Both the position numbers and the translations under genes were made by a program. A stretch of 64,000 nt of DNA from Burkholderia plantarii (GTDB lineage Bacteria > Pseudomonadota > Gammaproteobacteria > Burkholderiales > Burkholderiaceae), in the NCBI RefSeq assembly GCF_001411805.1, contig NZ_CP007212.1, forward strand, positions 124,001-188,000, read 5' to 3'. The notes beneath the pieces are model-generated. The model worked only from the letters and a program-made list of their open reading frames with translations. It did no database searches and was not told the origin of the DNA. Numbering within the stretch: the stretch's first letter is position 1; every line of letters begins with the position of its first letter. Positions 46,713 through 62,908 of this stretch are shown here, piece after piece.

Positions 46713-46821
46713 CGCGTGGCGCGGTGGGCGGCACGAATGAATGGCCACGGGGCGCGGAGGGGCGATTGAGCGGCGGGCGGGCGACCGGGCGTTCGGTGAG
46801 CGGCGAACATTGGGTGGCAAC

Positions 46822-47120
46822 GGCCAAGACCAACGGCCAAGACCAACGGCCAAGACCAACGGCCAAGACCAACGGCCAAGACCAACGGCCAAGACCAACG
46901 GCCAAGACCAACGGCCAAGACCAACGGCCAAGACCAACGGCCAAGACCAACGGCCAAGACCAACGGCCAAGACCAACGGCCAAGACCAACGGCCAAGACC
47001 AACGGCCAAGACCAACGGCCAAGACCAACGGCCAAGACCAACGGCCAAGACCAACGGCCAAGACCAACGGCCAAGACCAACCGCCAAGACCAACCGCCAA
47101 GATCAACCGCCAAGACCAAC
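46822..47120. repeat. Minisatellite: 23 tandem copies of a 13-bp unit
   Basis: Twenty perfect copies of GGCCAAGACCAAC (46822-47081) are followed by three copies starting with C (47082-47120), the middle one with one further change. The array lies in the gap 46713-47499 between two rightward genes. Since 13 is not a multiple of three, open frames through it are artefacts of the period. The rest of the gap shows no gene. Likely hypervariable in copy number by slippage. Confidence 0.97.
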
Positions 47121-47499
47121 GAGCGCCGCCGACGGGCAAACCCGCCCAGGCGACCCCGTCGGGCCCGCCCGCGGCGGCCACCCCATGCGGCCGACCACGA
47201 AGCCTCCAATCCTGCGCAAGCAGGCGGCCAGGCGCAATCGCTCCCCGTCGCTCCCTGCCGCCGAGGGGCGCGAACCAGACGCGAACCGGGCGCAAATCAG
47301 GCACCGTTTCGAAATGTCCCACCCCTGATCCTGCGCCGACTCGGGCGAGATTTCCCGCGCCGTCTCGCGCCGGGCCGGTTACCATCGCGGCATCCCGTGG
47401 TGTCACGAAAGCGTCACGCAGTACGCGCAGCGTCCATGGCGGATCGACGCGTTTCTAGGACGACACACCACACCGACCGAGGACGAGGAGGATGACGAC

Positions 47500-50321: not shown

Positions 50322-51380
50322 TCACGCCGCCGAGCGCGCCGCGACCGGCGCGCCCGGATGCAGCGTCGCGTCGAACGCGCGGCACGAGGCGCGGAAGTGG
50401 TCGATCTTCGCCTCGGTGTCGGCCGGGAACGCGAGCGGCGCGGTGGTCCACGCGTCGCGCGGCAGCCGCCGGCAGATCGCGTGATCCTCGTCGAACACCT
50501 GGCGGTTCAGCCGCGCGGTGGAGGCGAAGAACGGCTCGAGGATGCCGTCGGCCGCCGCGCCCGTGGTCGGGGCGCCGTACAGCCGGCTCGTGAAGCGCGT
50601 GAGCCCGGCCGCCTCGCCGCCCGCCGGCAGGAAATGCTGCAGCGAGTACGAGTAGCCGTAGGTCGACGAGATCATCGTGAACGGGAACAGGTACAGGCTC
50701 AGATAGCCCTCGTACTGGAAGTCGATCGCGAACAGGCGCCGCAGCTTCGCGAGCTGGTTGCGCTGGCGCGAGGCGCCGAGCGGCGTGCGCCAGAGCGAGT
50801 TCACGCCGTCGTAGCGGTTCTCGCCGTCCTCGAGCGCGAGCGTACCGAGCGTGCCCGGATGCACGGCGCCGATGTGGTACGGCTCGAGCGCGTTCTCGAC
50901 GGCGAGCGGCCAGTAGCAGCCGTAGTCGTAGCGGTTCAGGTCGAGGCGCCGGTCGATGTTGAACGAGATGTCGGCCACCAGCGGCTCGAACTCGCCGAGC
51001 TGGGTGGCCAGGTCGGTGGCGGGACGGATGCCGACGAACAGGAAATCGCCGCACCAGTCGAGCGCGTAGGTGTTGAGCGCGGCGCGCTCGATCGAGCATT
51101 GGCGGAACCGCTCGCGGCCCGGGATGATCAGCTGCCCCTCGCGGTAGGTCCAGCCGTGATAGGCGCAGCTGGCCGGCTGGTTGCCGCTGTCGTCGAGGTA
51201 CATGCGCGCGCCGCGGTGCGGGCAGCGGTTGTCGAACGCGACCAGTTCGCCGGCGTCGTTGAACACGACGATCTCGCCGGCCGCGCAGTCGAGGCGCACG
51301 AAGTCGCCGTCGGCCGGCAGCTCGCGCCGGTGGCCTACCAGATGCCAGTGGCGCGCGATCAGTTCGAGATCGAAGTCCAT
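50322..51380 (-). CDS. Rieske non-haem iron oxygenase
   Basis: A 352-aa oxygenase alpha-subunit-like protein. The Rieske [2Fe-2S] site is CPHRG (Cys53, His55) and CAYHGW (Cys72, His75). The mononuclear iron site is in ENALEPYHIGAVH (His169, His174), with the third carboxylate ligand expected downstream. No reductase or ferredoxin gene is adjacent. It is the last gene of the glycan cluster, eight bases after the acyltransferase. In that setting it may hydroxylate the sugar or its acyl group, or work as an amine oxygenase. That role is inference; the family is certain. Confidence 0.9.
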   Translation of the reverse strand: MDFDLELIARHWHLVGHRRELPADGDFVRLDCAAGEIVVFNDAGELVAFDNRCPHRGARMYLDDSGNQPASCAYHGWTYREGQLIIPGRERFRQCSIERAALNTYALDWCGDFLFVGIRPATDLATQLGEFEPLVADISFNIDRRLDLNRYDYGCYWPLAVENALEPYHIGAVHPGTLGTLALEDGENRYDGVNSLWRTPLGASRQRNQLAKLRRLFAIDFQYEGYLSLYLFPFTMISSTYGYSYSLQHFLPAGGEAAGLTRFTSRLYGAPTTGAAADGILEPFFASTARLNRQVFDEDHAICRRLPRDAWTTAPLAFPADTEAKIDHFRASCRAFDATLHPGAPVAARSAA

Positions 51381-51388
51381 CGCCGCGC

Positions 51389-52081
51389 TCACAGCTTCTT
51401 CGCCGGGGCGGCGTACAGGGTCGCGCCGTCGGGCACCTTGCGCATCACCACGGCGCCGGCGCCGATCCGCGCGTCGGCGCCGACCGCCACGCGCGGCAGC
51501 ACGCGCGCGCCCGAGCCGAAGAACACGCCTTCGCCCACCCGCACGTGGCCGGTCAGGTCGACGTGCGAACTGAGCGTCGAATAGGCGCCCACCGTGACGT
51601 CGTGGCCGACGCTCGACAGGATGTTGACGGCCACGAAATCGCCGATCTCGCAATCGGCCGACAGCACCGCCTGCGGACACAGCACCACGCCCGTGCCGAG
51701 CCGCGCGCTGCGCGCGACCACCGCGCTCGGGTGGCGCAGCGAGGCGAAGCGCGCGCCGCGCGCGGCCAGCCGGGCCACCACGTCGCGTTTGGCCTGCGGC
51801 TCGCCGATCGCGATCAGCAGCGCGTCGCCGTCGGCGGGCTGGTAGGTGTCGATGTCGCCGCGCCATTCGAGCGCGTAGGGAAAGCCGTCGAGCGCCCGCG
51901 GATTCGCGTCGAGGAAGCCCGTCACGCGCGGCCCGAGGCCCGCGTCGGCGGCATCCTCGGCCCAGTTGATCAGCTCGCGCGCGAACGCGCCGCCGCCGGC
52001 CACGAGGTAGCGGGCCGGCTTCGCGGCGTCGTGCGGCGTACCTGCCGGCGCATGCATCGATCCACCCGTCGGCGAATTCAT
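51389..52081 (-). CDS. Sugar N-acyltransferase, NeuD/PglD/VioB-like
   Basis: A 230-aa left-handed beta-helix acyltransferase. The N-terminal Rossmann-like part (YLVAGGGAFARELINWAED) binds the nucleotide sugar. The C-terminal hexapeptide repeats (VVLCPQAVLSADCEIGDFVA, then NILSSVGHDVTVGAYSTLS and RIGAGAVVMRKVPDG) build the coil, and the catalytic His is in SVGHD. The family N-acylates UDP- or dTDP-4-amino sugars. With a VioA-like aminotransferase upstream it is a good VioB counterpart. It shares one base with the SDR stop (TGATG). Confidence 0.85.
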   Translation of the reverse strand: MNSPTGGSMHAPAGTPHDAAKPARYLVAGGGAFARELINWAEDAADAGLGPRVTGFLDANPRALDGFPYALEWRGDIDTYQPADGDALLIAIGEPQAKRDVVARLAARGARFASLRHPSAVVARSARLGTGVVLCPQAVLSADCEIGDFVAVNILSSVGHDVTVGAYSTLSSHVDLTGHVRVGEGVFFGSGARVLPRVAVGADARIGAGAVVMRKVPDGATLYAAPAKKL

Positions 52082-52845
52082 CAGCGCACCCGGTAGCCGC
52101 CGTCCACGGCGAGCGCCGTGCCGGTCACCCAGCGGCTCGCGTCGGACAGCAGGAACAGCGCGGCATTGGCCACGTCCTCGGGCTCGCCGAAGCCGAGCAG
52201 GTGGCTCGACTCGTAGGCGGCCACCGCGTCGTCGGGGCTGCCGCGCGTGAGGCGTGCGTGCATCTCGGTGCGCACCGCGCCGGCCGCGATCGCGTTGACG
52301 CGGATCCGGCGCGGCGCGAGTTCGCAGGCGAGCGAGCGCACCAGCCCTTCCACGCCGGCCTTGGCGGCCGAGTAGGCGGTCATCCCGACCTGCCCGGTCG
52401 AGGCGGCCACCGACGACATCAGCACCAGCGAGGCGCCGTCGGCCAGCACGCCCTTCCTGGCGGCCGCGCGCGCGATGCCGAACGCCGCGAACAGGCTGCC
52501 GGCGAACGTCTCGTCGAGCTGCGCCTGCCTGGTCATGCGGGCCGGGCGGATCAGCTCGATGCCGGCCGCGTGGAACACGCCGGCCAGCGCGCCGTGCGTC
52601 TCGGCCAGTTCCGAGACCCACTCGGCGGTGACGTCGGCGTCGTCGAGCGCGCGCGTTTCGGCGCGATGGCCGTCGCCGGGCAGGGCCGCGAACGTGTCGG
52701 CGAGGCGCGCGGCGTCGCGGCCGCCCGCGATCACGCGGCCGCCGGCGCGCGCGATCGCCACCGCGGTGGCGCGGCCGAGGCCCGACGAGGCGCCGGTGAC
52801 GAGATAGGTGCCGCCCGCGAGGGCGTGATCGGAAAAGGCGGTCAT
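52081..52845 (-). CDS. Short-chain dehydrogenase/reductase (FabG-like)
   Basis: A 254-aa SDR. The cofactor motif TGASSGLG is at residues 17-24 and the catalytic residues are Ser144/145, Tyr158 and Lys162 (AYSAAKAG). SVAASTGQVGMTAYSAAKAG and NAIAAGAVRTEM are FabG-like. It overlaps the KAS III gene by four bases. Beside two condensing enzymes and an ACP, the best reading is reduction of a 3-ketoacyl-ACP to a 3-hydroxyacyl-ACP, giving the acyl group for the amino sugar. Confidence 0.88.
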   Translation of the reverse strand: MTAFSDHALAGGTYLVTGASSGLGRATAVAIARAGGRVIAGGRDAARLADTFAALPGDGHRAETRALDDADVTAEWVSELAETHGALAGVFHAAGIELIRPARMTRQAQLDETFAGSLFAAFGIARAAARKGVLADGASLVLMSSVAASTGQVGMTAYSAAKAGVEGLVRSLACELAPRRIRVNAIAAGAVRTEMHARLTRGSPDDAVAAYESSHLLGFGEPEDVANAALFLLSDASRWVTGTALAVDGGYRVR

Positions 52846-53942
52846 GATTCGATGGTGTCGACCACGGCGAGCGGCCCGGCGACGAGCGAGGCCGAGGCCC
52901 ACGAGTAGCCGACCCCGAAGCCGAACATGGCCAGGCGCTGGCGCCGCGTGGCGAGCGCCTCGCGCAGTTCGGTGGTCATCAGCAGCGGGATCGACGCGCA
53001 GCTCGTGTTGCCGTAGGTGGTCAGGTTGACGGGGACGCGCTCGCCCGGCAGGCCGGCCTTCTTCGCCAGATGCTTGAGCATGAACAGGTTGGCCTGGTGG
53101 AACAGGAACGCGTCATGGTCCGGCACGCCGTGCCCGGCCAGCTCGAGCGTGCGCGCGACGAGCGGCGGGATGCGTCGCAGCGTGAAGTTGAAGATCTCGC
53201 CGCCGTCCATGAACAGGTGCGCGCGCGAGCGGCCGGCGAGGCGCGGGTCGGCCTCGGGGGCCGCTTCCGGCATGCCGGCCGGGGTTGCGGCAACCACGCT
53301 TTCCCGGCACCCGCCGCCCGGCACGATCAGGTTCGGCACGCCGGCGCCGTCCGAGCCGATCACGAACACGGCGTCCTCGGCCTCGGGATCGGCTTCCAGC
53401 GCGGTGACCGTGCCGGCGTCGCCGAACAGCAGCGCGGTGGCGCGGTCGTCGGGATCGACCAGCTTGCTGATGGTGTCGCCCACGGCCAGCAGCACGCGCC
53501 GCGCGGCGCCGCTGCGGATCAGGTTCATGCCGAGCCAGAGCGCCTGCGGGTAGCCGGAGCAGCCGAGGTTGATGTCGAGCGCGATCGACGCGGCGGGCAG
53601 CCCCCAGGCGGCCTGCAGCACGAACGCGGTGCCGGGCAGCCGGTAGTCGGGCGTCTGCGAGACGAACAGCACCGCGTCCACCTCGTCGGCGCGCCAGCCC
53701 AGGCCGCGCAGCAGGTGGGCGCCGGCGGCGCGGCACAGGTCGCCGGCGGTCTCGCCGGCGGCGGCCACGCGGCGGCGCTCGACGCCGATCATCTTGACCA
53801 CGTCGCGCACGCCGGCCTCGCCGAAGCGTTCGACGAAGACGTCGTTGGCGAGCTCGCGCGCGGGCACGCACGACACCACCCCGGCGATGCGGGCGCCGCC
53901 GGAGCGCAGCTCCCGGCCGACGGAGGCGAGCGGCGCGTTCAA
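52842..53942 (-). CDS. 3-oxoacyl-ACP synthase III-like condensing enzyme (copy 2)
   Basis: A 366-aa KAS III/FabH homologue with TTG start at 53942, two bases after the ACP stop codon. The Cys-His-Asn triad is intact: Cys128 in NLGCSGYPQ, His282 in FHQANLFM and Asn312 in YGNTSCAS. It condenses an acyl-CoA primer with malonyl-ACP, probably with the ACP encoded next to it. It differs in sequence from the second KAS III at 54195, so the two may act at different steps or on different primers. It overlaps the SDR gene. Confidence 0.88.
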   Translation of the reverse strand: MNAPLASVGRELRSGGARIAGVVSCVPARELANDVFVERFGEAGVRDVVKMIGVERRRVAAAGETAGDLCRAAGAHLLRGLGWRADEVDAVLFVSQTPDYRLPGTAFVLQAAWGLPAASIALDINLGCSGYPQALWLGMNLIRSGAARRVLLAVGDTISKLVDPDDRATALLFGDAGTVTALEADPEAEDAVFVIGSDGAGVPNLIVPGGGCRESVVAATPAGMPEAAPEADPRLAGRSRAHLFMDGGEIFNFTLRRIPPLVARTLELAGHGVPDHDAFLFHQANLFMLKHLAKKAGLPGERVPVNLTTYGNTSCASIPLLMTTELREALATRRQRLAMFGFGVGYSWASASLVAGPLAVVDTIES

Positions 53943-53944
53943 GC

Positions 53945-54166
53945 TCAGCCCTTCTGCGCCGCGACCAGCGCTTCGATGTCGGCCACCGTCTGGCAGTTGC
54001 CGAGCGCCTGGCCGTTGAGCAGCACGCCGAAGCAATCGTCGGCCAGCGCGATGGTCGAGACGATCGCGAGCGAATCCCAGTTGTGATCGGCCAGCACCAG
54101 CGCGGGCGACACCTCGGCGGCGTCGATTTCGAAGACTTCCGCGAGCCCTTCGTAGAATGCGTTCAT
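53945..54166 (-). CDS. Acyl carrier protein
   Basis: A 73-aa carrier protein with the phosphopantetheine attachment site NWDSLAIVS (Ser32) and a helical acidic fold (YEGLAEVFEIDAAEVS, then TVADIEALVAAQ). The Trp before DSL and the Cys in CFGVLL differ from the fatty-acid-synthase ACP, marking it as dedicated. It lies between the two KAS III genes, so intermediates of the acyl chain are probably built on it. Confidence 0.9.
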   Translation of the reverse strand: MNAFYEGLAEVFEIDAAEVSPALVLADHNWDSLAIVSTIALADDCFGVLLNGQALGNCQTVADIEALVAAQKG

Positions 54167-54194
54167 CAGAGTTCCTGCCTAAAGCCAACGGTTG

Positions 54195-55220
54195 CTAACA
54201 GTTCAACAGACAGCCGGCCCACGAGTAGCCGACGCCGAATCCGAGCAGCATGGCGCGCGTGCCGCGTGCCAGCCTGCCTTCGCCGCGCAGCTGCTCGAGC
54301 GCGAGCGGCAGCGTCGACGACACCGTGTTGCCGGTGTGCTCCATGAGGATCGGGAAGCGATCCTCGGAGACCTTCATTTTCTTGCGCAGCGCCTCGAGCA
54401 TGAACCGGTTCGCCTGGTGCAGCACGAAGCAGTCGATGTCGTCGCGCGTGAGGCCGGCGCGCTCGAGCAGCCGGTCGGCCGCGCGCGGCACCTCGGCGAG
54501 CGAGAACGCCATCACCTCGGCGCCGTTCATGTACAGATGTTCGTCGGTGCGCACGTTGCCGGAGGCGTCCTCGTGCTCGCGCGCGCTCTCGGCGCTGCGC
54601 GGCTCGCGGAACAGCCCGGCGCGCACGATCAGGTTCTGCGCGCCGCGCCCGTCGGTGCCGAACACGAACGGGCCGATGCGCTCGGCGTCGGCCGCGCGCT
54701 CGTCGAGGCCGATTACGGTGGCCGCCGCGCCGTCGCCGAACAGCGTGCGCACGCTCTTGTCGAGCGGATGCAGGTACTTCGAATAGGTGTCGGCGGTCAG
54801 CAGCAGCACGCTGCGCGCCGCGCCCGTCTCGACCAGCCCCTTGGCGAGCGACAGCCCGTACACGTAGCCCGAGCAGCCGAGGTTCACGTCGAACGCGCCG
54901 GCGTGGGTCGGAATCCCGAGCCGGTGCTGCAGCAGGCAGGCCGAGGCCGGCAGCACGTAGTCGGGCGCCTGGGTGCAGAGGATCACGAAATCGATCTCGC
55001 CGGCGCTCACGCGGCCCTGCGCGAACAGCCGCCGCGCGGCCTCGAACGCGAGGTCCGAGGCGGTCTCGCCGTCGGCCGCCACGCGCCGCTCGCGGATGCC
55101 GGTCTTGGCGAGGATCTTCTCGGCCGGCCACTCCGGGTACAGCGCCGCGAGCGTGTCGTTGCCGAGCACCGTCGCGGGCAGATGGCTCGCGATGTCGAGG
55201 ATCGCGGCGCGTGCGGGCAT
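54195..55220 (-). CDS. 3-oxoacyl-ACP synthase III-like condensing enzyme (copy 1)
   Basis: A 341-aa KAS III/FabH homologue; the ATG at 55220 starts just at the conserved first strand (ARAAILDIASHLP). The triad is Cys116 in NLGCSGYVYG, His268 in LHQANRFM and Asn298 in HTGNTVSST. The end LLGFGVGYSWAG matches copy 2. It shares one base with the stop of the aminotransferase gene. Similar FabH-like genes occur in viosamine-type flagellin glycan islands of Pseudomonas and Xanthomonas, which supports a role in acyl-group synthesis. Confidence 0.9.
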   Translation of the reverse strand: MPARAAILDIASHLPATVLGNDTLAALYPEWPAEKILAKTGIRERRVAADGETASDLAFEAARRLFAQGRVSAGEIDFVILCTQAPDYVLPASACLLQHRLGIPTHAGAFDVNLGCSGYVYGLSLAKGLVETGAARSVLLLTADTYSKYLHPLDKSVRTLFGDGAAATVIGLDERAADAERIGPFVFGTDGRGAQNLIVRAGLFREPRSAESAREHEDASGNVRTDEHLYMNGAEVMAFSLAEVPRAADRLLERAGLTRDDIDCFVLHQANRFMLEALRKKMKVSEDRFPILMEHTGNTVSSTLPLALEQLRGEGRLARGTRAMLLGFGVGYSWAGCLLNC

Positions 55221-56368
55221 CAGCGCGCCTCCGCGATCAGCGAGACGATGCGTTCCACGTTGGCGTCCGACAGCTCCGGATAGATCGGCAGGCACAGGAT
55301 GCGCCGCGAGGTCTCGCGCGCCACCGGCAGGTTGTCCGGATGCGCCGACGGCAGGCCGCGGTAGTTCGGGAAGTCCGAGATCAGCGGATAGAAGTAGCGG
55401 CGCCCGTAGATCTCGTGGTCGCGCAGGTGCTGGTAGAGCCCGTCGCGCGAGAGCGGGAAATCATCGTCGACGAGGATCGGGAAATACGAGTGGTTCGCCA
55501 CCTTCGCGTCGACCGGCGGCGGGCAGCGGATGCCGGGTATCTCGGCCAGCAGCACGCGGTAGCGCGCGTCGATCGCGGCGCGCCGCGCCAGCGCGGCGTC
55601 GATGTGCTGCAACTGCAGCAGCCCGAACGCGGCGTTGATCTCGCTCATCTTGCCGTTGATGCCGGCGGCCACCACCGTCACCTCGTCGACGAAGCCGAAG
55701 TTCTTCAGGTGGTCGATGTGCTGCTTGGTCTTCGCGTCGGGGCAGACGATCGCGCCGCCCTCGAAGGTGTTGAACACCTTGGTCGCGTGGAAGCTCAGGA
55801 TCGACAGGTCGCCGTGCTCGAGCACGCTGCTGTCGTGGGTATGGACCCCGAACGCGTGCGCGGCGTCGTAGATCACCTTCAGGTTGTAGTTGTCGGCGAT
55901 GCGGCGGATCGCCTTCACGTCGCAGGGCCGGCCGTAGCAGTGGACCGGCATGATGGCCGTGGTCTGCGGCGTGATGGCGGCCTCGATCCTGGCCGGGTCG
56001 AGGTTCAGCGTGTGCGGGTCGATGTCGACGAATACCGGCTTGATGCCGTTCCAGAGCAGCGAATGCGCGGTGGCCACGAACGAGTACGGGGTGGTGATCA
56101 CCTCGCCCGAAATGCGCAGCGCCTGCAACGCCGTGACCAGCGCGAGCGTGCCGTTGGTGAAGAGCGCCAGGTGCTCGACGCCGAGATACTCGCAGAGCGC
56201 CTTCTCCAGGCGCTGGTGGAACGGCCCGCCGTTGGTCAGCACCTTGCTGTCCCAGATCTGTTCGAGATACGGCAGGAATTCGGCGAGTGGCGCGAGATGC
56301 GGCTGCGTCACATAGATGCGTTCGTCGGCCTGGGGCTCGACCGCGCGCAGCGGCAGGGCGTTCATCAT
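55220..56368 (-). CDS. vioA: Nucleotide-sugar 4-aminotransferase, VioA-like (DegT family)
   Basis: A 382-aa PLP enzyme of the DegT/DnrJ/EryC1/StrS family. Lys197 in SFHATKVFNTFEGG holds the cofactor and Asp168 in VIYDAAHAFGV contacts its ring nitrogen. Long stretches (YVTQPHLAPLAEFLPYLEQI, TNGTLALVTALQALR, ATAHSLLWNGIKPVFVDIDP) read like VioA, which makes dTDP-4-amino-4,6-dideoxy-D-glucose (viosamine) from the 4-keto sugar. dTDP-glucose synthase and dehydratase are absent here and would come from elsewhere in the genome. It overlaps the glycosyltransferase gene by four bases. Confidence 0.85.
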   Translation of the reverse strand: MMNALPLRAVEPQADERIYVTQPHLAPLAEFLPYLEQIWDSKVLTNGGPFHQRLEKALCEYLGVEHLALFTNGTLALVTALQALRISGEVITTPYSFVATAHSLLWNGIKPVFVDIDPHTLNLDPARIEAAITPQTTAIMPVHCYGRPCDVKAIRRIADNYNLKVIYDAAHAFGVHTHDSSVLEHGDLSILSFHATKVFNTFEGGAIVCPDAKTKQHIDHLKNFGFVDEVTVVAAGINGKMSEINAAFGLLQLQHIDAALARRAAIDARYRVLLAEIPGIRCPPPVDAKVANHSYFPILVDDDFPLSRDGLYQHLRDHEIYGRRYFYPLISDFPNYRGLPSAHPDNLPVARETSRRILCLPIYPELSDANVERIVSLIAEAR

Positions 56369-58737
56369 GCTTCTCCGGTGAGGGCGGCCTCGGCGGCCGT
56401 GGAATCGGCGGCGGCGCCGACGGCGGCGCGCTCGGGCACCGTGAACGAGGCCGGCGCCTCGTCGGCGCACCAGCGCCGCCAGGCCATCCGGAACGCGTCG
56501 GACACCGCGTTGGCGATGCGCTCGGGCTGGAAGCCCGGCGACTGCCGGCAGCGCTCGCGCAGGCCGCGGCGCACGTCGGCGAGCCCTTCCAGGTCGTTGG
56601 CGAGCGCGATGCCGCGGGCGACGAAATCGTCGGCGCTGTCGGCCACGAACTGCTCGAGTCCGACCGACGACATCCAGACCGCGCCGGCGCGGCTCGCCAG
56701 CGTGTCGCCGCGGATCGTCAGGGTCGGCACGCCCATCCAGAGCGCGTTGAGCGCGGTGGTCGAGCCGGTGTACGGGAACGTGTCGAGGCAGAGGTCCACG
56801 TGATGGTGCTGCTGCAGGTAGACGGCGGCGGGCGCGCGCGGCTGCAGGTCGAGCCGCTGGTGCGCGATGCCCTCGGCCGTGAACCATTCGAGCAGCATGT
56901 CCACGCCGCCCACGCGCGGGATCGAGCCGATCCGCATGCGCGAGTTCGGCACCGCGTGCAGGATCCGCGCCCACTCGGCGATCACCTCGCGGCGCAGCTT
57001 GTTCAGGCGGTTGAAGCTGCCGAACGTCACGAAGCCGTTGTGCAGCGCGGGCAGCAGGTTGACGGGCGGCGCGTTGTCGACCGGCTTGAAGGTGCCGCCC
57101 GCCGGCAGATGGATGATCTTCTCGGTGTACTGGCGCTCCATCTCGCCGAACGGCACGCCGAAGCGGTCCGCGAGGTAGTAGTCCATCGCGTCGAGCCCGG
57201 TCGTGCCGGGATAGCCGATCCAGGTGATCTGCACCGGCGCCGGCTTGCGCGCGAGCGCGGGCAGGCGGTTGCGGCCGGTGTGGTTCGACAGGTCGAGCAC
57301 GATGTCGATGCGGTCGGCGCGGATCCGCTCGACCAGACGGTCGTCGGTCAGGCCCGCCACCTGCAGCCAGCTGTCGGTCCAGCCGCGCATGCGCTCGCTG
57401 ATGCCGTCCTCGGTGGTGTGGTTGTGGTAGACGTGCAGCGACAGCGACGGATCGCGGTGCAGCACTTCCAGGATCGGCATGATGTACGACGCCACCGCGT
57501 GATTGAACAGGTCGCCCGAGATGATGCCGACGCGCAGCTGGCGCTCCGGATCGCGCTTGTTGGCGTGGCGCGGCCAGCGCGAGCGTACCGGCGCCTCGTG
57601 AATGTCGGCGAAGCGACGGTGCTCGGCGAAGATCGCCTCGCTGTCGAGCTGCGGATCATGGGTCAGGCAGAACAGCAGGTTGCTGTGCATCGCGGCGTCG
57701 CGCGGCGTGAGCTCGTGCGCGCGACGGAACGCCCGTTCGGCCTCCAGCGTGGCGCCCAGTTCGCTCAGCGCCACGCCGAGCGAGCCGTACATCTGCTGCG
57801 AGTCGGGCGCGAGTTCGATCGAGCGGTTGCCGGCCGCGATCGCCTCGGTGCTGCGGCCCTGCGCGAGCAGCGTCATGTTCAGCACGCGCCATGCCTCGGC
57901 GTAGCGGTCGTCCACCGAGATCGCGCGGCGCGCTTCGCGCTCCGAATCGGCGAGCCGGTTGGCCAGGCGCAGCACGTCCGCGTAGAGCGTGCCGAGCACC
58001 ACGTCGGCCGGATCGAGCGCGGTGGCGCGCGCCAGCGGCTCGGCCGCGGCCAGGTACTGGCCGTCCTTGTGCAGCGCGTTGCTGAGCGATTTCCAGGCGT
58101 AGCCGCTCGCCGGGTAGCGCTGTGTCATGGTGCGCGCGTGCTTGACGGCCTCGGCGTAGCGGCCCTTGTTGTAGAGCGCGGTGAAGCGCGACGCGTCCTG
58201 CTGGGTCGGCCGCCGCCCGAGGGCGCCGCGCGTGTCCGCGTTGACCGGCGCCTCGGGCGCGGCGGGCGCCTGCGTGACCGTCACCGCATGGCCCGCGGCG
58301 GCGGTGACGGCCGCCGCGGCGCGGCCTTCCGCCGAAATCGACAGGCGCTGGATCAGGCCGTCGAGCGCCGGGCCGTGGATGCCGCGCTGCTGGCACATGC
58401 CGATCATCGCCCAGGCGGCGGCCACGCGGCCCGCCTCGATCTGCGCGTTGATGTAGGCGACCCAGAACTGGCCGTTGTTCGGGTCGATGCCCAACGCGGC
58501 CTCGAAATGCGGCAGCGCCGCCTCCGGGTTGCCGGTCTGCACGTGCAGCACCGCCAGGTTGTAACGCGCGTCCACATAGTTCGGCCGGGCCGTGGCGATC
58601 ACCTCGTACATGGCCTGGGCGTCGGCGAGCTCGCCCTTGTGATGGCAGGCGAGCGCGCTCTGCATCACGAGCGCGATGTCCGCGTCGAGCTGCTGCGGAT
58701 CGGGCACGGGGCCGGCGGTAGGCATCGAATCGGACAT
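56365..58737 (-). CDS. TPR-containing GT41 glycosyltransferase (SPINDLY/OGT-like)
   Basis: A 790-aa cytoplasmic protein. TPR helices occupy about residues 15-135 and 190-375. The C-terminal half is a GT41 domain: LRVGIISGDLFNHAVASYI, DLSNHTGRNRLPALARKPAP, WIGYPGTTGLDAMDY, GSFNRLNKL and LDTFPYTGSTTALNALWMGV. These bacterial OGT homologues near flagellin genes transfer sugars to Ser/Thr of flagellin. It is the first gene of the eight-gene cluster; a weak -10-like GATAAT (plus-strand 58772-58777) lies upstream. A terminator separates it from fliT. Confidence 0.92.
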   Translation of the reverse strand: MSDSMPTAGPVPDPQQLDADIALVMQSALACHHKGELADAQAMYEVIATARPNYVDARYNLAVLHVQTGNPEAALPHFEAALGIDPNNGQFWVAYINAQIEAGRVAAAWAMIGMCQQRGIHGPALDGLIQRLSISAEGRAAAAVTAAAGHAVTVTQAPAAPEAPVNADTRGALGRRPTQQDASRFTALYNKGRYAEAVKHARTMTQRYPASGYAWKSLSNALHKDGQYLAAAEPLARATALDPADVVLGTLYADVLRLANRLADSEREARRAISVDDRYAEAWRVLNMTLLAQGRSTEAIAAGNRSIELAPDSQQMYGSLGVALSELGATLEAERAFRRAHELTPRDAAMHSNLLFCLTHDPQLDSEAIFAEHRRFADIHEAPVRSRWPRHANKRDPERQLRVGIISGDLFNHAVASYIMPILEVLHRDPSLSLHVYHNHTTEDGISERMRGWTDSWLQVAGLTDDRLVERIRADRIDIVLDLSNHTGRNRLPALARKPAPVQITWIGYPGTTGLDAMDYYLADRFGVPFGEMERQYTEKIIHLPAGGTFKPVDNAPPVNLLPALHNGFVTFGSFNRLNKLRREVIAEWARILHAVPNSRMRIGSIPRVGGVDMLLEWFTAEGIAHQRLDLQPRAPAAVYLQQHHHVDLCLDTFPYTGSTTALNALWMGVPTLTIRGDTLASRAGAVWMSSVGLEQFVADSADDFVARGIALANDLEGLADVRRGLRERCRQSPGFQPERIANAVSDAFRMAWRRWCADEAPASFTVPERAAVGAAADSTAAEAALTGEA

Positions 58738-58948
58738 GGCGTAAATCGGACGGGAATAGCGAATGGTAGAAATTATCCGGCCGTCCGGCGTGCGACGAAG
58801 CCCGGAACTGACCGGTAAACCGCCGTCAATTTCGCGGATCTACGCGGCCCGCGCGGCGGCGACGAGGGGCGGACCGGGCCGGCGTCTCCGGGATTTCCCG
58901 CGGGTGGCTCCGGCTGGGACGGCCAGGCCCGCTCGCGCGCCTGGCGAC

Positions 58949-58976
58949 GAAAAAAAAGCCCGCGGGGCGGGCTTCG
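58949..58976 (-). terminator. Intrinsic terminator after fliT
   Basis: Read leftward, AAGCCCGC, loop CCC, GCGGGCTT then a run of eight T. A strong terminator between fliT and the glycosyltransferase gene, so the glycan cluster needs its own promoter within 58738-58948. Confidence 0.85.
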
Positions 58977-59031
58977 AGGTGAACGAGCACGCGCTCATGC
59001 GCGTGAATTGTGATTATTCGGGGCGCACCGC

Positions 59032-59340
59032 TCAGTAGCCGAGCGAGGTGGCGGCCTGGCTGTACTGCCGTGCCGCGTGGATCCGTTCGCTCGCCGCGCG
59101 GTACTCGCGCTGCAGTTCGTCGCGCGCCAGGGCCGATTCGGCGATCGCCGCCGCGTCGAGCGCCTGGATCTCGCGGATCATCAGCAGGCTTTCCGGCGTC
59201 TGTTCCGCTTCGATCGACATCAGGTAGGGCGAGCGCGCGGCCACCAGCCGCTCGACGCCCGCCCAGTCGGCGAGCCGCACGGCCCGCTCGATGTCGTGCG
59301 TCATCGCCAGCACCTGGCTCACGAGGGTTTGCTGATCCAT
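59032..59340 (-). CDS. fliT: FliT-like flagellar chaperone
   Basis: A 102-aa, almost entirely helical protein (VSQVLAMTHDIERAVRLADW, then VERLVAARSPYLMSIEAE). It follows fliD by 21 bases, where FliT, the export chaperone of the filament cap protein and regulator of FlhDC, is expected. Sequence conservation in FliT is low, so the call leans on size, helix content and position. Confidence 0.78.
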   Translation of the reverse strand: MDQQTLVSQVLAMTHDIERAVRLADWAGVERLVAARSPYLMSIEAEQTPESLLMIREIQALDAAAIAESALARDELQREYRAASERIHAARQYSQAATSLGY

Positions 59341-59361
59341 GTCCGTCTCTCCCCGGGCCGC

Positions 59362-60924
59362 TTACTTGTTGGTGGCGAGTGCGCCGGCGCTGTTGGTGCC
59401 GCCGAACAGCTGGGTCAGGTAGTTCTGGTTGGTCGTCATTTCGGCCAGTACCGTGTTCAGTTGAGTGAACTGCGTGTTGTACTGCGTGGTCAGCGTCTGC
59501 GCGTAGGCGGACAGCGCCGTCTGCTGGGTGCTCAGGCTCGCCAGCGTCGAGGTGACCGAGTTCTCGCTCTGCGTGAGCACGCCCTTGTCGGACGTGATCG
59601 ACGTGATCGCGGTGTTCATCTGCGCGCCGATGCCGTTGGTGCTGTTGAACAGCGCCGCGGTCGCGCCCGGGTTGCTCGTCAGCGCCGTGGTCAGCGTCGT
59701 CTGGTTGATCACCAGGTCGCCCGCCGTCGCGCCGTCGGTGCCGTCCGACACCGTGATGCCGAGCGAATTCAGCGTGGCCGTCACACCGTTGCTGGTGACC
59801 GAGCCGCCGAGGATCGCCGACAGCTGCGACTGGATCGAGTTGAGCGCCGAGTCGCCGAACAGCGCGCCGACCGTGGGCTTGTTGCTGCCGGCGGTGGTGC
59901 TGTACGAGCCGACCGTCTGCATTGCCGTGACGAGCGCGTTGTAGTTCTGCACGAAGGTCGTGATCGCGGCCGACTGCTTGGTGGTGTCGGCGGCGATGGT
60001 CAGCGTCTGCTTGGTGGCCGGCGTGGTGGTCGAGACCGCCGCCTGCGTGAGGTTCAGCGTGACGCCGGCGATCGCCGAGGTCACCGTGTTGGTCGAGCTC
60101 GAGTTCGCGATGCCGCCGACCGTGAATTGCGCGTCCTGCGCGGCGGTCGATTGGGTCCACGAGGTGGCGGCCGTGGTGCCGGCCGAGACGATCGTCGACT
60201 GGCCGCCGGTGGTGCTCGGGGTGGAGGTGACGCCGAGCTCCGACAGACCGGTGTCGGTGGTGGCGTTGACGCTCACGTTGATGGTGTTGGCCGCGCCGCT
60301 GTTCGTCGAGCTCAGCACCAGATGGGCGCCATCGGCGCCGTTGACGATGGTCGCCGTCACGCCGGGGTTGTCGCTCGCGTTGTTGATGGCGTCCTTGATG
60401 CCGGCCAGCGTGTTGTTGTTCGAGTTGATGCTGACCGTCGACGACTTGCCGTTGACGGTCAGCGTCATGGTGCCGGTGCCGAGCTGCGTGCTCGCGCCGA
60501 ACGCCGGCGACGACAGCGATTGCGACTGGGCGATCTGGGTCACGCCGATCTGGTAGGTGCCGGCCACGGCGCCGGCGCCGGCCGACGCGGTCAGGCCGCT
60601 GCCCGAGGCGGTGGCCGTGAAGGTCTGGGCGAAGGTGCCGTCCGAGAGCGTCGCGAGCGACGACTGCAGCGTCGTCAGCGCGGTCTGCAGCGCCGTGTAG
60701 GCCTGCGACTTGTTCTGGTTCAGGGCGATCGCGGTGGACAGCAGGGACGCCTGCGCGGCCGTCTTCGAATTGACCAGCGCGGTGACGAGCGTGTTGACGT
60801 CCATGCCGGTGTTGCCCGTCGAGCCGCTGATGATCGATTGCGCGGCTTCCTGCAGCGCGGTGCTGCTGGACAGCTGGTTGTTGCTGGTCTGGGACGAGAG
60901 AATGCTGCTCGAGATCGTGGACAT
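59362..60924 (-). CDS. fliD: Flagellar filament cap protein FliD
   Basis: A 520-aa filament cap (hook-associated protein 2) that guides flagellin polymerisation at the tip. The start at 60924 (STISSSILSSQTSNN) is preferred over a Met 13 codons upstream. The N-terminal D0/D1 helix carries GMDVNTLVTALVNSKTAAQ, the middle is Thr/Ser/Gly-rich, and the C-terminal coiled coil ends YLTQLFGGTNSAGALATNK with QYNTQFTQLNTVLAEM before it, as in FliD. It lies between fliC and fliT. Confidence 0.95.
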   Translation of the reverse strand: MSTISSSILSSQTSNNQLSSSTALQEAAQSIISGSTGNTGMDVNTLVTALVNSKTAAQASLLSTAIALNQNKSQAYTALQTALTTLQSSLATLSDGTFAQTFTATASGSGLTASAGAGAVAGTYQIGVTQIAQSQSLSSPAFGASTQLGTGTMTLTVNGKSSTVSINSNNNTLAGIKDAINNASDNPGVTATIVNGADGAHLVLSSTNSGAANTINVSVNATTDTGLSELGVTSTPSTTGGQSTIVSAGTTAATSWTQSTAAQDAQFTVGGIANSSSTNTVTSAIAGVTLNLTQAAVSTTTPATKQTLTIAADTTKQSAAITTFVQNYNALVTAMQTVGSYSTTAGSNKPTVGALFGDSALNSIQSQLSAILGGSVTSNGVTATLNSLGITVSDGTDGATAGDLVINQTTLTTALTSNPGATAALFNSTNGIGAQMNTAITSITSDKGVLTQSENSVTSTLASLSTQQTALSAYAQTLTTQYNTQFTQLNTVLAEMTTNQNYLTQLFGGTNSAGALATNK

Positions 60925-61063
60925 CGCGTAGCTCCGTTGGGGCGCCATCGACGGCGCAGACAATTCAGTTGCGGATCGTGGCGGATCCTACGGCAAACCG
61001 CGAGAAAACGGTACGACGAAAAGGCGGCTGTTGCAGCGCCAATTCCGGAAACGGGGGGGCTGA

Positions 61064-61109
61064 AAACAAAAAGCGCGCGACGGCCACGAGGAAGGTTGCA
61101 CCGTCGCAC
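61064..61109 (-). terminator. Probable intrinsic terminator after fliC
   Basis: Read leftward, GTGCGACGG pairs with CCGTCGCGC (one G-T) around a 17-base loop, followed by GCTTTTTGTTTTC. A second GC-rich hairpin (61113-61138) sits between it and fliC but lacks a T-tract. Confidence 0.55.
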
Positions 61110-61160
61110 GAACGGGCCGCCCATGATGGCGCGGCCCGGGTTTTCAAAGCGCTACGGCGA

Positions 61161-62315
61161 TTACTGCAGGAGCTTCAGAACTTGCTGCGGCAGCGAGTTG
61201 GCTTGCGCCAGCACCGAGATACCGGCTTGTTGCAGCACTTGAGCCTTGCTCAGGTTCGCGGTTTCCTGCGCGAAGTCGGCGCTCTGGATTTGCGACTGAG
61301 CCGACGACAGGTTCGTCGAGTTGGCTTGCTGCGTTTGCGCGATGGCCTGCAGTCGGTTCTGGGTTGCACCGAGCGTTGCCTGCAGGTTGTTGACGGTGGT
61401 CAGCGCGTTGGCGATCGAGACGATGGCCTGGTTGGCGCTCGTTGCGTCGCTGATGCTCACGTTCGACACGGTCGGCGGCGCGTTGACGGCGTTGATCTGC
61501 GAGATCATGTTGGCGGCGGCGCTGGCCTGTGCCGTCGTCATGCCGCTGGTTGCGCCGGTCGACAGCGTCAGGTTCGTGACTGCCGTGCCCGTGCCTGCCG
61601 ACGTGCCCGTCGTGAAGATCGCACCGACTGCCGTCGTGCTCAGGGCCTGACCGTTCTGGTCCGTGAACGTGAAGCCGCCCTTGCCGTCCGACAGCACGTT
61701 GACCGACGTGATGGCCGGTTGGGCCGCCGTCGTGGCCGCGCCGTTCGCGTCGAGGCTCAGGTTCTGGATCGTGCCGACGTTCGTGCCCGATTGCACCAGA
61801 CCGCCACCGATCTTGGCCGCCGACAGGCTTTGGCTCAGGTCGAGGCTGACCGTCTGGCCGACGTTCGCGCCGATCTGGAACGTGACGATGCCGGCCGAAC
61901 CGTCGAGCAGGTTCTTGCCGTTGAAGTTCGTCTGCGAAGCGATACGGTTCACTTCCTGGATCTGCTGCGCCACTTCCTTCTCGGCAGCGGCCTGGTCGCT
62001 CGACGACAGCGTGCCCGTGGCGGCTTCCGTTGCCAGCGTGCTGATACGCTGCAGGCTGGTCGTCAGCGACGACAGCTGGCTCGACGTCGTCTGGATCAGC
62101 GAGACGGCGTCGTTGGTGTTCTGCACGCCCTGGTTCAGGCCGTTGATCTGCGTTTGCATACGCGTTGCAATCGCCAGACCTGCTGCATCGTCAGCCGCGC
62201 TGTTGATGCGGTTGCCCGACGACAGACGCGTGATGGCTTGCGACAGTGCGCTCTGCGAGCCGTTCAGGTTCTGCTGAGCGACCAGCGAGTTGACATTAGT
62301 ATTAATACCGAGCAT
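61161..62315 (-). CDS. fliC: Flagellin
   Basis: A 384-aa flagellin, the filament subunit. Conserved ends are intact: LGINTNVNSLVAQQNLNGSQ, LSSGNRINSAADDAAGLAIA and, at the C-terminus, SRIQSADFAQETANL-type ISSAQSQIQSADFA, then QQAGISVLAQANSLPQQVL. The central region (about 170-290) is the surface-exposed, Thr/Ser/Ala-rich part and holds most candidate O-glycosylation sites for the adjacent GT41 enzyme. An AGGAG site precedes the ATG and a sigma-28-like promoter lies at 62361-62386. Confidence 0.97.
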   Translation of the reverse strand: MLGINTNVNSLVAQQNLNGSQSALSQAITRLSSGNRINSAADDAAGLAIATRMQTQINGLNQGVQNTNDAVSLIQTTSSQLSSLTTSLQRISTLATEAATGTLSSSDQAAAEKEVAQQIQEVNRIASQTNFNGKNLLDGSAGIVTFQIGANVGQTVSLDLSQSLSAAKIGGGLVQSGTNVGTIQNLSLDANGAATTAAQPAITSVNVLSDGKGGFTFTDQNGQALSTTAVGAIFTTGTSAGTGTAVTNLTLSTGATSGMTTAQASAAANMISQINAVNAPPTVSNVSISDATSANQAIVSIANALTTVNNLQATLGATQNRLQAIAQTQQANSTNLSSAQSQIQSADFAQETANLSKAQVLQQAGISVLAQANSLPQQVLKLLQ

Positions 62316-62386: not shown

Positions 62387-62908
62387 CTGGCCGCCTCAGA
62401 GCAGGATTTCGGCGGCCCGAAAAAAAACTTGAGGGATAGTTTCGATTCGTCCCGACTTTTTAATCTCGCGTCGGTCGCGAATCGCGCTTCGCCCCGTGGC
62501 CGACGCAAAGTGCTGTCGGTTGCGGGATTGCACGCGGATGACTCCGCCCACAGATGGATTTCGGCAGCGGCGGCCAAGACTGAAGGACGGGAGATACCCG
62601 GGACGACACGAATGTGTGGATACGACAGGGAGGCGGTAAACCTCTGGCAGTCCGAATGTTTACCTGCTAACATGGCGGGCTGAATTGAGATTTCTGCAAG
62701 CGGTGCCCGTTTTCGGCATGTCCTGCTGGCAGTCAAACGCGGCGCCTGGTGTGGGTTGCCGGGCGTTTCGCGGTGCATTCCGCCTCTCTTTTCCGGCCTC
62801 CGAGGCCACCAAGCCGCTCGTTTCGCCTGTTTGTGGAAACGCCCGGAAGGCCGGTGCGTGGCGCTTGGCCGCTACGTTTTTGACCGTATCAAGCAATTTG
62901 GGAACGAC
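62387..62908. other. Intergenic region between divergent fliC and rpsU
   Basis: About 520 bases with no supported gene. It includes an A-rich patch at 62421-62430 on the fliC side, which could be an upstream promoter element. A clear sigma-70 promoter for rpsU was not identified. Confidence 0.4.

What the first reader, a model, noticed from the sequence alone, without database searches (positions are those of the whole stretch)
50322..62315. Candidate flagellin glycosylation island building an acylated viosamine-like sugar
Seen: eight overlapping or closely spaced leftward genes (GT41 transferase, VioA-like aminotransferase, KAS III, ACP, KAS III, SDR, hexapeptide acyltransferase, Rieske oxygenase) next to fliC-fliD-fliT. 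Known: VioA makes dTDP-viosamine, VioB-like enzymes acylate it, and Pseudomonas and Xanthomonas flagellin islands include FabH-like genes. Inferred: the cluster makes an N-acylated 4-amino-4,6-dideoxyhexose attached to flagellin Ser/Thr. The gene content differs from described islands in having two KAS III, a private ACP and an oxygenase.
Basis: partly seen in the sequence, partly recalled or inferred. Interest (0 to 1): 0.78.

Follow-up and report, generated by a model that had tools for sequence, protein, structure and literature searches.

The report
Flagellin sugar-decorating gene cluster with oxygenase
Next to the flagellin gene this Burkholderia carries an eight-gene operon that probably builds a rare sugar with a custom fatty side chain and fixes it onto its flagella; the sugar part is shared with many relatives, while the side-chain part, including an oxygenase of unknown role, looks like a swappable module that recurs in other bacteria and in phage-like contigs.

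Summary
In detail: eight leftward, mostly overlapping genes (GT41, VioA-type aminotransferase, KAS III, ACP, KAS III, SDR, NeuD/VioB-type acyltransferase, Rieske oxygenase) follow fliC-fliD-fliT at 50322-62315. A flagellin glycosylation island making an N-acylated viosamine is well supported by synteny and by Pseudomonas syringae precedent, but unproven here. The claim of unusual content is partly wrong: ACP, KAS III, reductase and acyltransferase are known in Pseudomonas islands; two KAS plus ACP accompany 3,5-dihydroxyhexanoyl in Flavobacterium psychrophilum; Rieske and ACP genes sit in the Xanthomonas flagellar locus. New here: GT41-vioA is a constant pair (27 of 65 Burkholderia genomes, fliC beside it in 26) and different acyl genes follow it. 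The six-gene KAS-ACP-KAS-SDR-AT-Rieske module is in 5 of 65 and complete at 43 of 53 loci compared, in three phyla. Where contigs allow a view, Rieske comes with KAS genes, though KAS genes also occur without it; phage-like contigs show the same split. I infer a 3,5-dihydroxyhexanoyl chain hydroxylated once (predicted residue 291.13 Da). A new variant of a known kind.

The parts
61161..62315 (-). fliC, flagellin, 384 aa; presumed acceptor
   Evidence: Flagellin_N 132.2 bits; 47 Ser/Thr among residues 141-320
59362..60924 (-). fliD, filament cap
   Evidence: 88% match to annotated B. glumae fliD, same place
59032..59340 (-). fliT, chaperone
   Evidence: PF05400 30.8 bits, cut-off 29.5
58955..58975 (-). 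terminator-like hairpin with T run between fliT and the operon; the stretch aligns in the 7 syntenic loci compared
   Evidence: the scan finds no more hairpins in the region, 4, than its shuffles, mean 5.1; conservation is the only support
56365..58737 (-). TPR-GT41 (OGT-like) glycosyltransferase, 790 aa; presumed flagellin glycosyltransferase
   Evidence: PF13844 162 bits; nearest solved chains SPINDLY 285 bits and a bacterial TPR protein 5djs 247 bits
55220..56365 (-). VioA-type dTDP-4-keto-6-deoxyglucose 4-aminotransferase
   Evidence: DegT 348.6 bits; DesI TIGR04427 295.9 bits, below its cut-off 650; B. glumae copy (92%) annotated VioA
54195..55220 (-). KAS1, FabH-like KAS III
   Evidence: NF006829 278.8 bits, cut-off 249; PDB 3gwa/3gwe 619 bits
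53945..54166 (-). private acyl carrier protein, 73 aa, with DSL motif
   Evidence: PF00550 22.8 bits, cut-off 20.8; DS[LMI] in 49 of 49 loci with an ACP match
52842..53942 (-). KAS2, second FabH-like KAS III, TTG start
   Evidence: NF006829 210.2 bits, below cut-off 249; PDB 4efi 520 bits; Cys128, His282, Asn312 invariant in 18 of 18 aligned
52081..52845 (-). SDR, presumed 3-oxoacyl-ACP reductase
   Evidence: adh_short_C2 163.7 bits
51389..52081 (-). NeuD/VioB/PglD-type N-acyltransferase
   Evidence: TIGR03570 189.3 bits over cut-off 160.8; perosamine N-acetyltransferase 4ea7 85 bits, VioB 7txp 74 bits
50322..51380 (-). Rieske non-heme iron oxygenase

Best explanation
The operon is a flagellin O-glycosylation island. 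RmlB-made dTDP-4-keto-6-deoxyglucose is aminated by the VioA-type enzyme to dTDP-viosamine (Qui4N). On the private ACP, KAS1 makes acetoacetyl, the SDR reduces it, KAS2 adds a second malonyl-derived unit and the SDR reduces again, giving 3,5-dihydroxyhexanoyl-ACP; the NeuD/VioB-type enzyme moves the acyl to the C4 amine; the Rieske oxygenase adds one hydroxyl to the acyl chain before or after transfer; the GT41 enzyme attaches the sugar to flagellin Ser/Thr in the cytoplasm. Predicted residue mass 291.13 Da, 275.14 without the Rieske step. Shown: gene content, order, motifs, conservation, and that Rieske and KAS2 occur together or not at all in the 65 Burkholderia genomes. Inferred: every catalytic step, chain length, site of hydroxylation, acceptor. 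Rough odds: flagellin carries an N-acylated aminodideoxyhexose from this operon 0.85; acyl is C6 0.55; Rieske acts on the acyl chain 0.6.
For: Constant part: 27 of 65 Burkholderia genomes have a close GT41 (>=47% identity, >=755 bits); VioA stands beside it in 27 of 27 and flagellin at the same place in 26 of 27. After vioA, 5 of 27 have this six-gene module, 14 a NeuD-type acyltransferase, 7 a WbqC-type gene, 1 neither in the stretch held. Rieske and KAS2 orthologues are in the same 5 of 65 genomes. All six genes at 43 of 53 loci with this Rieske family, 28 in identical order; 0 of 19 loci of distant Rieske proteins have a KAS, SDR or acyltransferase relative at 60 bits. KAS1 and KAS2 fall into two lineages, each spanning the same main host groups (SH-aLRT 84 and 83). 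Same five functions as F. psychrophilum wfpC-wfpG, assigned by its authors to 3,5-dihydroxyhexanoyl. In P. syringae vioA, vioB, vioT and vioR mutants lack modified viosamine on flagellin. One rmlB over cut-off in the genome. In viral contigs, four loci with Rieske also have KAS and SDR, and five with only an acyltransferase match have no Rieske.
Against: No glycan was measured. VioA is below the DesI cut-off, so sugar stereochemistry is open. Homology to the wfp genes was not tested (sequences not available), and their order is read from the gene letters. The module is not flagellin-specific: flagellin was found at only 14 of 53 loci, and L047 and L050 carry Wzz and glycosyltransferase genes. 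KAS genes occur without Rieske: viral L178-L182, Azospirillum L184 and Parabacteroides L185/L186. Three Acetobacter loci lack one KAS. No reductase partner for the Rieske enzyme is in the operon. Of eight further Pseudomonadota regions chosen by KAS, Rieske was found in 5, only 24-28% identical to the queries. A review's description of a 291.1 Da Burkholderia flagellin glycan does not favour my structure.
Confidence: 0.55

Rival explanations
1. The same island, but the acyl stays C4: one KAS suffices, the other is redundant or selects the starter, and the product is N-(3-hydroxybutyryl)- or, with the Rieske step, N-(dihydroxybutyryl)-viosamine (231.11 or 247.11 Da).
For: P. syringae makes 3-hydroxybutyryl with one KAS; B. 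cenocepacia flagellin is recalled to carry 4,6-dideoxy-4-(3-hydroxybutanoylamino)glucose; loci with one KAS found and a Rieske exist (L171; viral loci; the Xanthomonas table).
Against: Both KAS lineages are kept side by side, with mostly intact catalytic motifs, across distant phyla; the same five functions accompany 3,5-dihydroxyhexanoyl in F. psychrophilum.
Confidence: 0.25
2. The Rieske enzyme oxidises the sugar ring or acts as a demethylase or amine oxidase rather than hydroxylating the acyl chain.
For: Its fold neighbours include N-demethylases such as stachydrine demethylase; the family name tells no substrate; KAS genes also occur without a Rieske gene.
Against: Its presence follows the acyl genes rather than sugar and transferase: no orthologue in the 22 of 27 Burkholderia GT41-vioA genomes with other acyl modules, and it stands near aminotransferases only 26-36% like VioA at 21 of 53 loci; in viral contigs it is absent from five loci that have transferase and an acyltransferase match but no KAS (three of these five are short or cut). 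No methyltransferase in the operon.
Confidence: 0.25
3. The operon decorates O-antigen or another surface polysaccharide, and its place next to fliC is incidental.
For: Acyl-module relatives sit in apparent polysaccharide loci (L047, L050); F. psychrophilum uses its equivalent for O-polysaccharide.
Against: GT41-vioA sits beside fliC in 26 of 27 Burkholderia, and two Massilia, one Janthinobacterium and a Burkholderiaceae MAG have the module with flagellin and GT41 relatives in other arrangements; GT41 enzymes are protein glycosyltransferases (established knowledge, not tested); no Wzx/Wzy-type gene in the operon.
Confidence: 0.08
4. A small secreted metabolite cluster unrelated to glycans.
For: KAS III, ACP, SDR and oxygenase also occur in polyketide-like pathways (general knowledge).
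Against: Aminotransferase, NeuD-type acyltransferase and GT41 in the same overlapping operon; no export or regulatory gene among the eight.
Confidence: 0.03

Closest known systems
Viosamine island of Pseudomonas syringae (vioA, vioM, vioT, vioS, vioB, vioR, acp), all seven with homologues in the P. aeruginosa PAK island
   Same: VioA, VioB-type acyltransferase, KAS III, reductase and private ACP; product on flagellin shown by mass spectrometry (PMC3927599, parts 1-2 of 5 read)
   Different: One KAS, no Rieske among the seven genes, a methyltransferase, and VioT caps a rhamnose chain; here two KAS, a Rieske gene, no methyltransferase, and GT41. Some Pseudomonas loci (for example L067) do hold two KAS plus Rieske within 10 kb of a 69-71% VioA
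Burkholderia cenocepacia flagellin glycosylation (Hanuszkiewicz 2014, not held; recalled, and passages in PMC5987112)
   Same: Recalled: transferase linked to the flagellin genes, rmlB-derived sugar, 4-amino-4,6-dideoxyglucose N-acylated with 3-hydroxybutanoyl
   Different: Recalled: the acyltransferase there lies in the O-antigen cluster; here sugar and acyl genes after RmlB are at the flagellin locus, with two KAS, ACP and Rieske
Flavobacterium psychrophilum wfpC-wfpD-wfpE-wfpF-wfpG (PMC6519341, passages read)
   Same: Two 3-ketoacyl-ACP synthases, ACP, reductase and a PglD-type acyltransferase; acyl group 3,5-dihydroxyhexanoyl by NMR; order as here if the letters follow the chromosome
   Different: Sugar is Qui2NAc4N in O-polysaccharide; no oxygenase named in the passages seen
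Xanthomonas flagellar region XCV2007-XCV2013 (PMC3826837, table passage read)
   Same: Rieske, acetyltransferase, SDR, KAS, ACP and aminotransferase between FleQ and other genes near flagellin
   Different: Two SDR and one KAS; listed as genes only; the word glycosylation does not occur in that paper's main text
B. glumae BGR1 flagellar region, NZ_DQ996271.1
   Same: Same locus, 80-96% identical proteins, RefSeq names the parts
   Different: Annotation only; KAS2 is unannotated and split over two frames in that record

Membership tests
P. syringae-type viosamine island | VioA-type aminotransferase | tested here: met
   DegT 348.6 bits; B. glumae copy annotated VioA. DesI equivalog cut-off not reached
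P. syringae-type viosamine island | KAS III, ACP, 3-oxoacyl reductase and VioB-type acyltransferase together | tested here: met
P. syringae-type viosamine island | VioM methyltransferase and a VioT-type transferase | tested here: not met
   No methyltransferase among the eight genes and the transferase is GT41, so it is not filed as a member
P. syringae-type viosamine island | Modified viosamine on flagellin | not testable with these tools
   needs mass spectrometry
Burkholderia flagellin-linked GT41-vioA locus | fliC-fliD-fliT-GT41-vioA synteny | tested here: met
   GT41 orthologue in 27 of 65 genomes; VioA beside it in 27 of 27, flagellin in 26 of 27
3,5-dihydroxyhexanoyl (wfp-type) acyl pathway | Two KAS, ACP, 3-ketoacyl reductase and PglD-type acyltransferase side by side | tested here: met
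   wfp functions from PMC6519341 passages
3,5-dihydroxyhexanoyl (wfp-type) acyl pathway | Same gene order | tested here: inconclusive
   order here known; wfp order taken from gene letters, not stated in the passages seen
3,5-dihydroxyhexanoyl (wfp-type) acyl pathway | Sequence homology to WfpC-WfpG | not tested
   Wfp sequences not in the collections I could reach
3,5-dihydroxyhexanoyl (wfp-type) acyl pathway | Product is 3,5-dihydroxyhexanoyl | not testable with these tools
   needs chemistry
GT41 | Glyco_transf_41 domain | tested here: met
   162 bits, cut-off 25
Rieske non-heme iron oxygenase | Rieske CxH...CxxH, 2-His-1-carboxylate residues, fold | tested here: met
Glycine betaine monooxygenase GbcA | Equivalog score | tested here: not met
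   72.1 bits against cut-off 670
TIGR03570 NeuD/PglB/VioB acyltransferases | Curated cut-off | tested here: met
   189.3 bits, cut-off 160.8

The most novel reading that the evidence does not exclude
Rieske oxygenases form a new class of glycan-tailoring enzymes: within a portable acyl-assembly cassette (KAS-ACP-KAS-SDR-N-acyltransferase-Rieske) they hydroxylate the N-acyl chain of aminodideoxysugars. Bacteria exchange this cassette behind a fixed sugar and transferase to change the surface of their flagella, and phages carry the same logic (RmlB, aminotransferase, HMW1C/GT41 transferase, with or without KAS-SDR-Rieske) to decorate their own or host proteins.
Probability: 0.45. Interest if true: 0.75.

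Novelty: new variant of a known kind. Interest (0 to 1): 0.55.

Why it matters
Flagellin glycans differ between strains and affect motility and recognition by hosts, yet their enzymology is called poorly defined (PMC12645811, section 6). This locus separates a constant part (VioA and GT41) from an interchangeable acyl part in one genus, so glycan differences might be predicted from three module types. It gives a testable role to a Rieske oxygenase lineage and to two KAS III enzymes whose close relatives have solved structures (3gwa/3gwe and 4efi; the record names give only a synthase).

Tried and rejected
Rejected: counting every KAS III profile match as a module. In 398 Pseudomonadota genomes 168 match at E <= 1e-60, but this genome's own FabH scores 221 bits there; only G000 and eight others exceed 260 bits, and the next is 236.5.

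Rejected as proof: the 291.1 Da glycan reported for B. pseudomallei flagellin (PMC3958885, section 11). It fits my 291.13 Da prediction, and a 73% Rieske relative carries that species name (P0005), but an N-acetylneuraminic acid residue is 291.10 Da and the review mentions acetyl, formic acid and possibly acetamidino groups, which do not favour my structure. I could not check whether the module lies at that species' flagellin locus.

Rejected: a sigma-28 argument for the operon; I saw only a site before fliC.

Weak points of single steps. Tree: two of five FabH reference rows (L131, L135) were wrong reading frames and are ignored; L134 and L132 are long branches; it is a quick tree without bootstrap. 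Pseudomonas KAS were assigned to the nearer of KAS1/KAS2, and some labelled KAS1 group with KAS2. Motifs: KAS1 HQAN in 44 of 47, KAS2 GC[SA]G in 39 of 46, SDR Y..[AS]K in 46 of 51, Rieske CxH...CxxH in 51 of 53; misses partly stem from short pieces or strict patterns. Dropped rows: of 69 loci, L037 (4 kb contig) was left out and L087-L105 served as negative control, leaving 49; with the window and L033-L035 this makes 53. The ten without all six genes: L042, L079, L080 (contig ends), L044, L045 (no acyltransferase match), L057 (no SDR or acyltransferase match), L064 (no ACP match), L069, L075, L077 (one KAS). The negative control used a 60-bit floor, which would miss most ACPs, and eight of its 19 stretches are shorter than 13.1 kb. 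The lists were capped, below the matches used here. Not checked: whether PAK's island has a second KAS or a Rieske gene. PHROGs gave no family for the two L198 proteins tried, so its phage origin rests on the collection alone.

Literature: all ten searches used; no title or abstract start that I saw was about a Rieske enzyme in flagellin glycosylation, in a library that lacks most subscription journals. Searches (Pseudomonas flagella; B. glumae flagella) showed nothing on this cluster in the passages seen.
Full report
OBSERVATION. The window is G000:C1:124001-188000 of an 8.08 Mb, three-contig genome. The closest named relative I saw at this locus is B. glumae (Rieske 95%; the eleven proteins 80-96%). 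The eight reported genes are there in the reported order, all on the minus strand, overlapping or nearly so. Between fliT and the operon lies a hairpin with a T run that aligns in the 7 syntenic loci compared, so the operon is probably its own transcription unit; I did not identify its promoter, and the simple promoter scan found none.

CONSTANT PART. A close GT41 orthologue (at least 47% identity and 755 bits) is found in 27 of 65 Burkholderia genomes, this one included. I fetched the places of the other 26. VioA (65-92% to the window's in those 26) is next to GT41 in 27 of 27, and fliC is in the stretch in 26 of 27 (L122 lacks it; in G050 it is on another contig together with fliD, fliT and the start of GT41).

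EXCHANGED PART. What follows vioA differs. Five genomes (G000, G014, G015, G050, G052) have KAS1-ACP-KAS2-SDR-acyltransferase-Rieske; in G050 they are split over contigs. Of the other 22, 14 have a NeuD-type acyltransferase on the opposite strand, 7 have a WbqC-type gene, and in one (L115) I found neither (Pfam of examples). Orthologues of Rieske and of KAS2 occur in exactly the same 5 of 65 genomes; the next Rieske match is 34% identical over half the protein. So the acyl genes appear to come and go as a unit behind a fixed sugar and transferase.

THE MODULE ELSEWHERE. A diverse Rieske alignment found 69 loci in named genomes. After leaving out one 4 kb contig and 19 distant partial matches, and adding the window and three genus loci, 53 were compared. 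All six genes are at 43 of 53; 28 have the identical order KAS-ACP-KAS-SDR-acyltransferase-Rieske. Of the ten exceptions, three sit at contig ends, four lack a match to one or two genes, and three Acetobacter loci have one KAS. Hosts include Paraburkholderia, Massilia, Bordetella, Ralstonia, Comamonadaceae, Caulobacter, Pseudomonas (rearranged), an Acidobacteriaceae MAG and Prochlorococcus (Rieske divergent). Flagellin was found at 14 of 53; a VioA at least 60% identical at 19, a weaker DegT aminotransferase match (26-36%) at 21. At L047 and L050 the neighbours include Wzz and glycosyltransferase genes, so the module also serves what look like polysaccharides. As a control, none of the 19 distant-Rieske loci carries a KAS, SDR or acyltransferase relative at 60 bits. 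A quick tree puts KAS1 and KAS2 in two separate lineages (SH-aLRT 84 and 83), each with the same main host groups.

A WIDER SAMPLE. In 398 Pseudomonadota genomes, G000 and eight others have a KAS well above the FabH background. Around those eight a Rieske gene is present in 5 (L166, L168, L170, L171, L173), but only 24-28% identical to the queries, and not found in 3 (L167, L169, L172), two of which begin within 0.3 kb of a contig end. L168 and L170 also have flagellin and GT41 relatives.

ACYL GENES WITHOUT RIESKE. Sets with ACP, KAS and SDR but no Rieske match exist: at a flagellin gene with pseudaminic acid synthase in Azospirillum brasilense Sp7 (L184), and in Parabacteroides polysaccharide loci (L185, L186). 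Five viral loci (L178-L182, with the same match values) have a KAS and a weak acyltransferase match only. So Rieske implies acyl genes in what I saw, not the reverse.

WHY C6 AND WHY THE ACYL CHAIN. In F. psychrophilum wfpC and wfpE (3-ketoacyl-ACP synthases), wfpD (ACP), wfpF (reductase) and wfpG (PglD-type acyltransferase) are assigned by their authors to the 3,5-dihydroxyhexanoyl group that they see by NMR (PMC6519341, passages). The window has the same five functions, in the same order if the wfp letters follow the chromosome, plus Rieske. In P. syringae, with one KAS and no Rieske among the seven genes listed, the acyl is 3-hydroxybutyryl and its residue without O-methyl is 231 Da (PMC3927599, parts 1-2 of 5), equal to my computed 231.11. 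Two KAS should give 275.14; one added oxygen gives 291.13. That the Rieske gene goes with the acyl genes and not with the sugar is the reason to place its oxygen on the acyl chain; this is inference.

PHAGE PARALLEL. Viral contigs were scanned with KAS2, the transferase found there and Rieske. Ten loci, L188-L197, hold relatives of a GT41 transferase with an HMW1C-type N-terminus. Of these, L188, L189, L190 and L195 (three of them the contigs of L176, L174 and L175) have acyltransferase, Rieske, DegT aminotransferase, KAS and SDR, with an ACP match in three; L197 has acyltransferase, Rieske and aminotransferase before its contig ends; L191-L194 have aminotransferase and a weak acyltransferase match but no Rieske, KAS or SDR match, and L196 is cut before the aminotransferase. 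Only L192 and L194 of those five have about 9 kb on both sides. L177 has aminotransferase, transferase, ACP, KAS and SDR and is cut where Rieske would be expected. L198, found with Rieske, has GT41-ACP-KAS-SDR-acyltransferase-Rieske. L190 and L192 also encode a dTDP-glucose 4,6-dehydratase relative (352.0 and 372.7 bits, cut-off 365.1). Tail proteins beside the cassette in L175, recombination genes in L188, a phage helicase in L192 and an integrase in L189 support phage origin. The same split between constant sugar/transferase and exchanged acyl genes thus appears a second time, in a small sample.

KNOWN OR NEW. Flagellin acyl-viosamine islands are known, and acyl sets with a private ACP are known, so this is not a new kind. 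A Xanthomonas flagellar region lists Rieske, acetyltransferase, two SDR, KAS, ACP and aminotransferase (XCV2007-XCV2013; PMC3826837 table passage). What I did not find in ten searches of the held library is a role for the Rieske gene, or the modular swap in Burkholderia. For B. cenocepacia I rely on recall of Hanuszkiewicz 2014 (not held) and on PMC5987112 passages linking wbxCD and rmlB to it.

LIMITS. No mass, no mutant, no enzyme assay. Counts depend on blast thresholds and on stretches of mostly 10-21 kb. The match between 291.13 Da and the 291.1 Da glycan of another Burkholderia is a lead only, and part of the published description speaks against it.

Noticed in passing
L174-L177, L188-L198 (viral contigs): Phage-like contigs carry protein-glycosylation-like cassettes: HMW1C/GT41 transferase, DegT aminotransferase, N-acyltransferase, in some a dTDP-glucose 4,6-dehydratase, and in some KAS-SDR-Rieske with ACP; possibly for decorating virion or host proteins.
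   Followed up: partly
L178-L182 (viral contigs): A KAS 43% like the LB400 KAS1 with a weak acyltransferase match, without Rieske; five loci with the same match values.
   Followed up: no
L184 (Azospirillum brasilense Sp7 plasmid p3): A flagellin gene preceded by pseudaminic acid synthase, TPR protein, ACP, acyl-CoA ligase, SDR and KAS III: another acyl-making set at a flagellin locus.
   Followed up: no
L185, L186 (Parabacteroides distasonis plasmid records): Acetyltransferase, ACP, AMP-binding ligase, KAS III and SDR in polysaccharide-like loci.
   Followed up: no
L183 (NZ_DQ996271.1, B. glumae BGR1, called plasmid pBGF3): KAS2 is unannotated and lies in two frames in this record, while G015's copy is open; the 25 kb record holds flagellar and chemotaxis genes and neighbours, so it may be a mislabelled chromosomal clone.
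   Followed up: partly
L065 (Paraburkholderia MAG titled 'Vsou symbiont'): fliC, VioA, GT41, KAS1, acyltransferase and Rieske matches are partial or in pieces, as if the island is decaying or the assembly is poor.
   Followed up: no
window 46818-47121: A 13-base unit repeated 23.4 times at 98% match.
   Followed up: no
window 62406-62432: TCAAGTTT-N11-GCCGAAAT upstream of fliC resembles a flagellar sigma-28 promoter (consensus recalled); the pattern was written from this site, so only the lack of other close matches in the window is informative.
   Followed up: no
L173: Two Rieske genes next to acyltransferase, two SDR and KAS in one Pseudomonadota genome.
   Followed up: no
L067 7091-9461: Pseudomonas island variant with two methyltransferase-domain genes and a PhyH-type oxygenase beside the Rieske module.
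   Followed up: no
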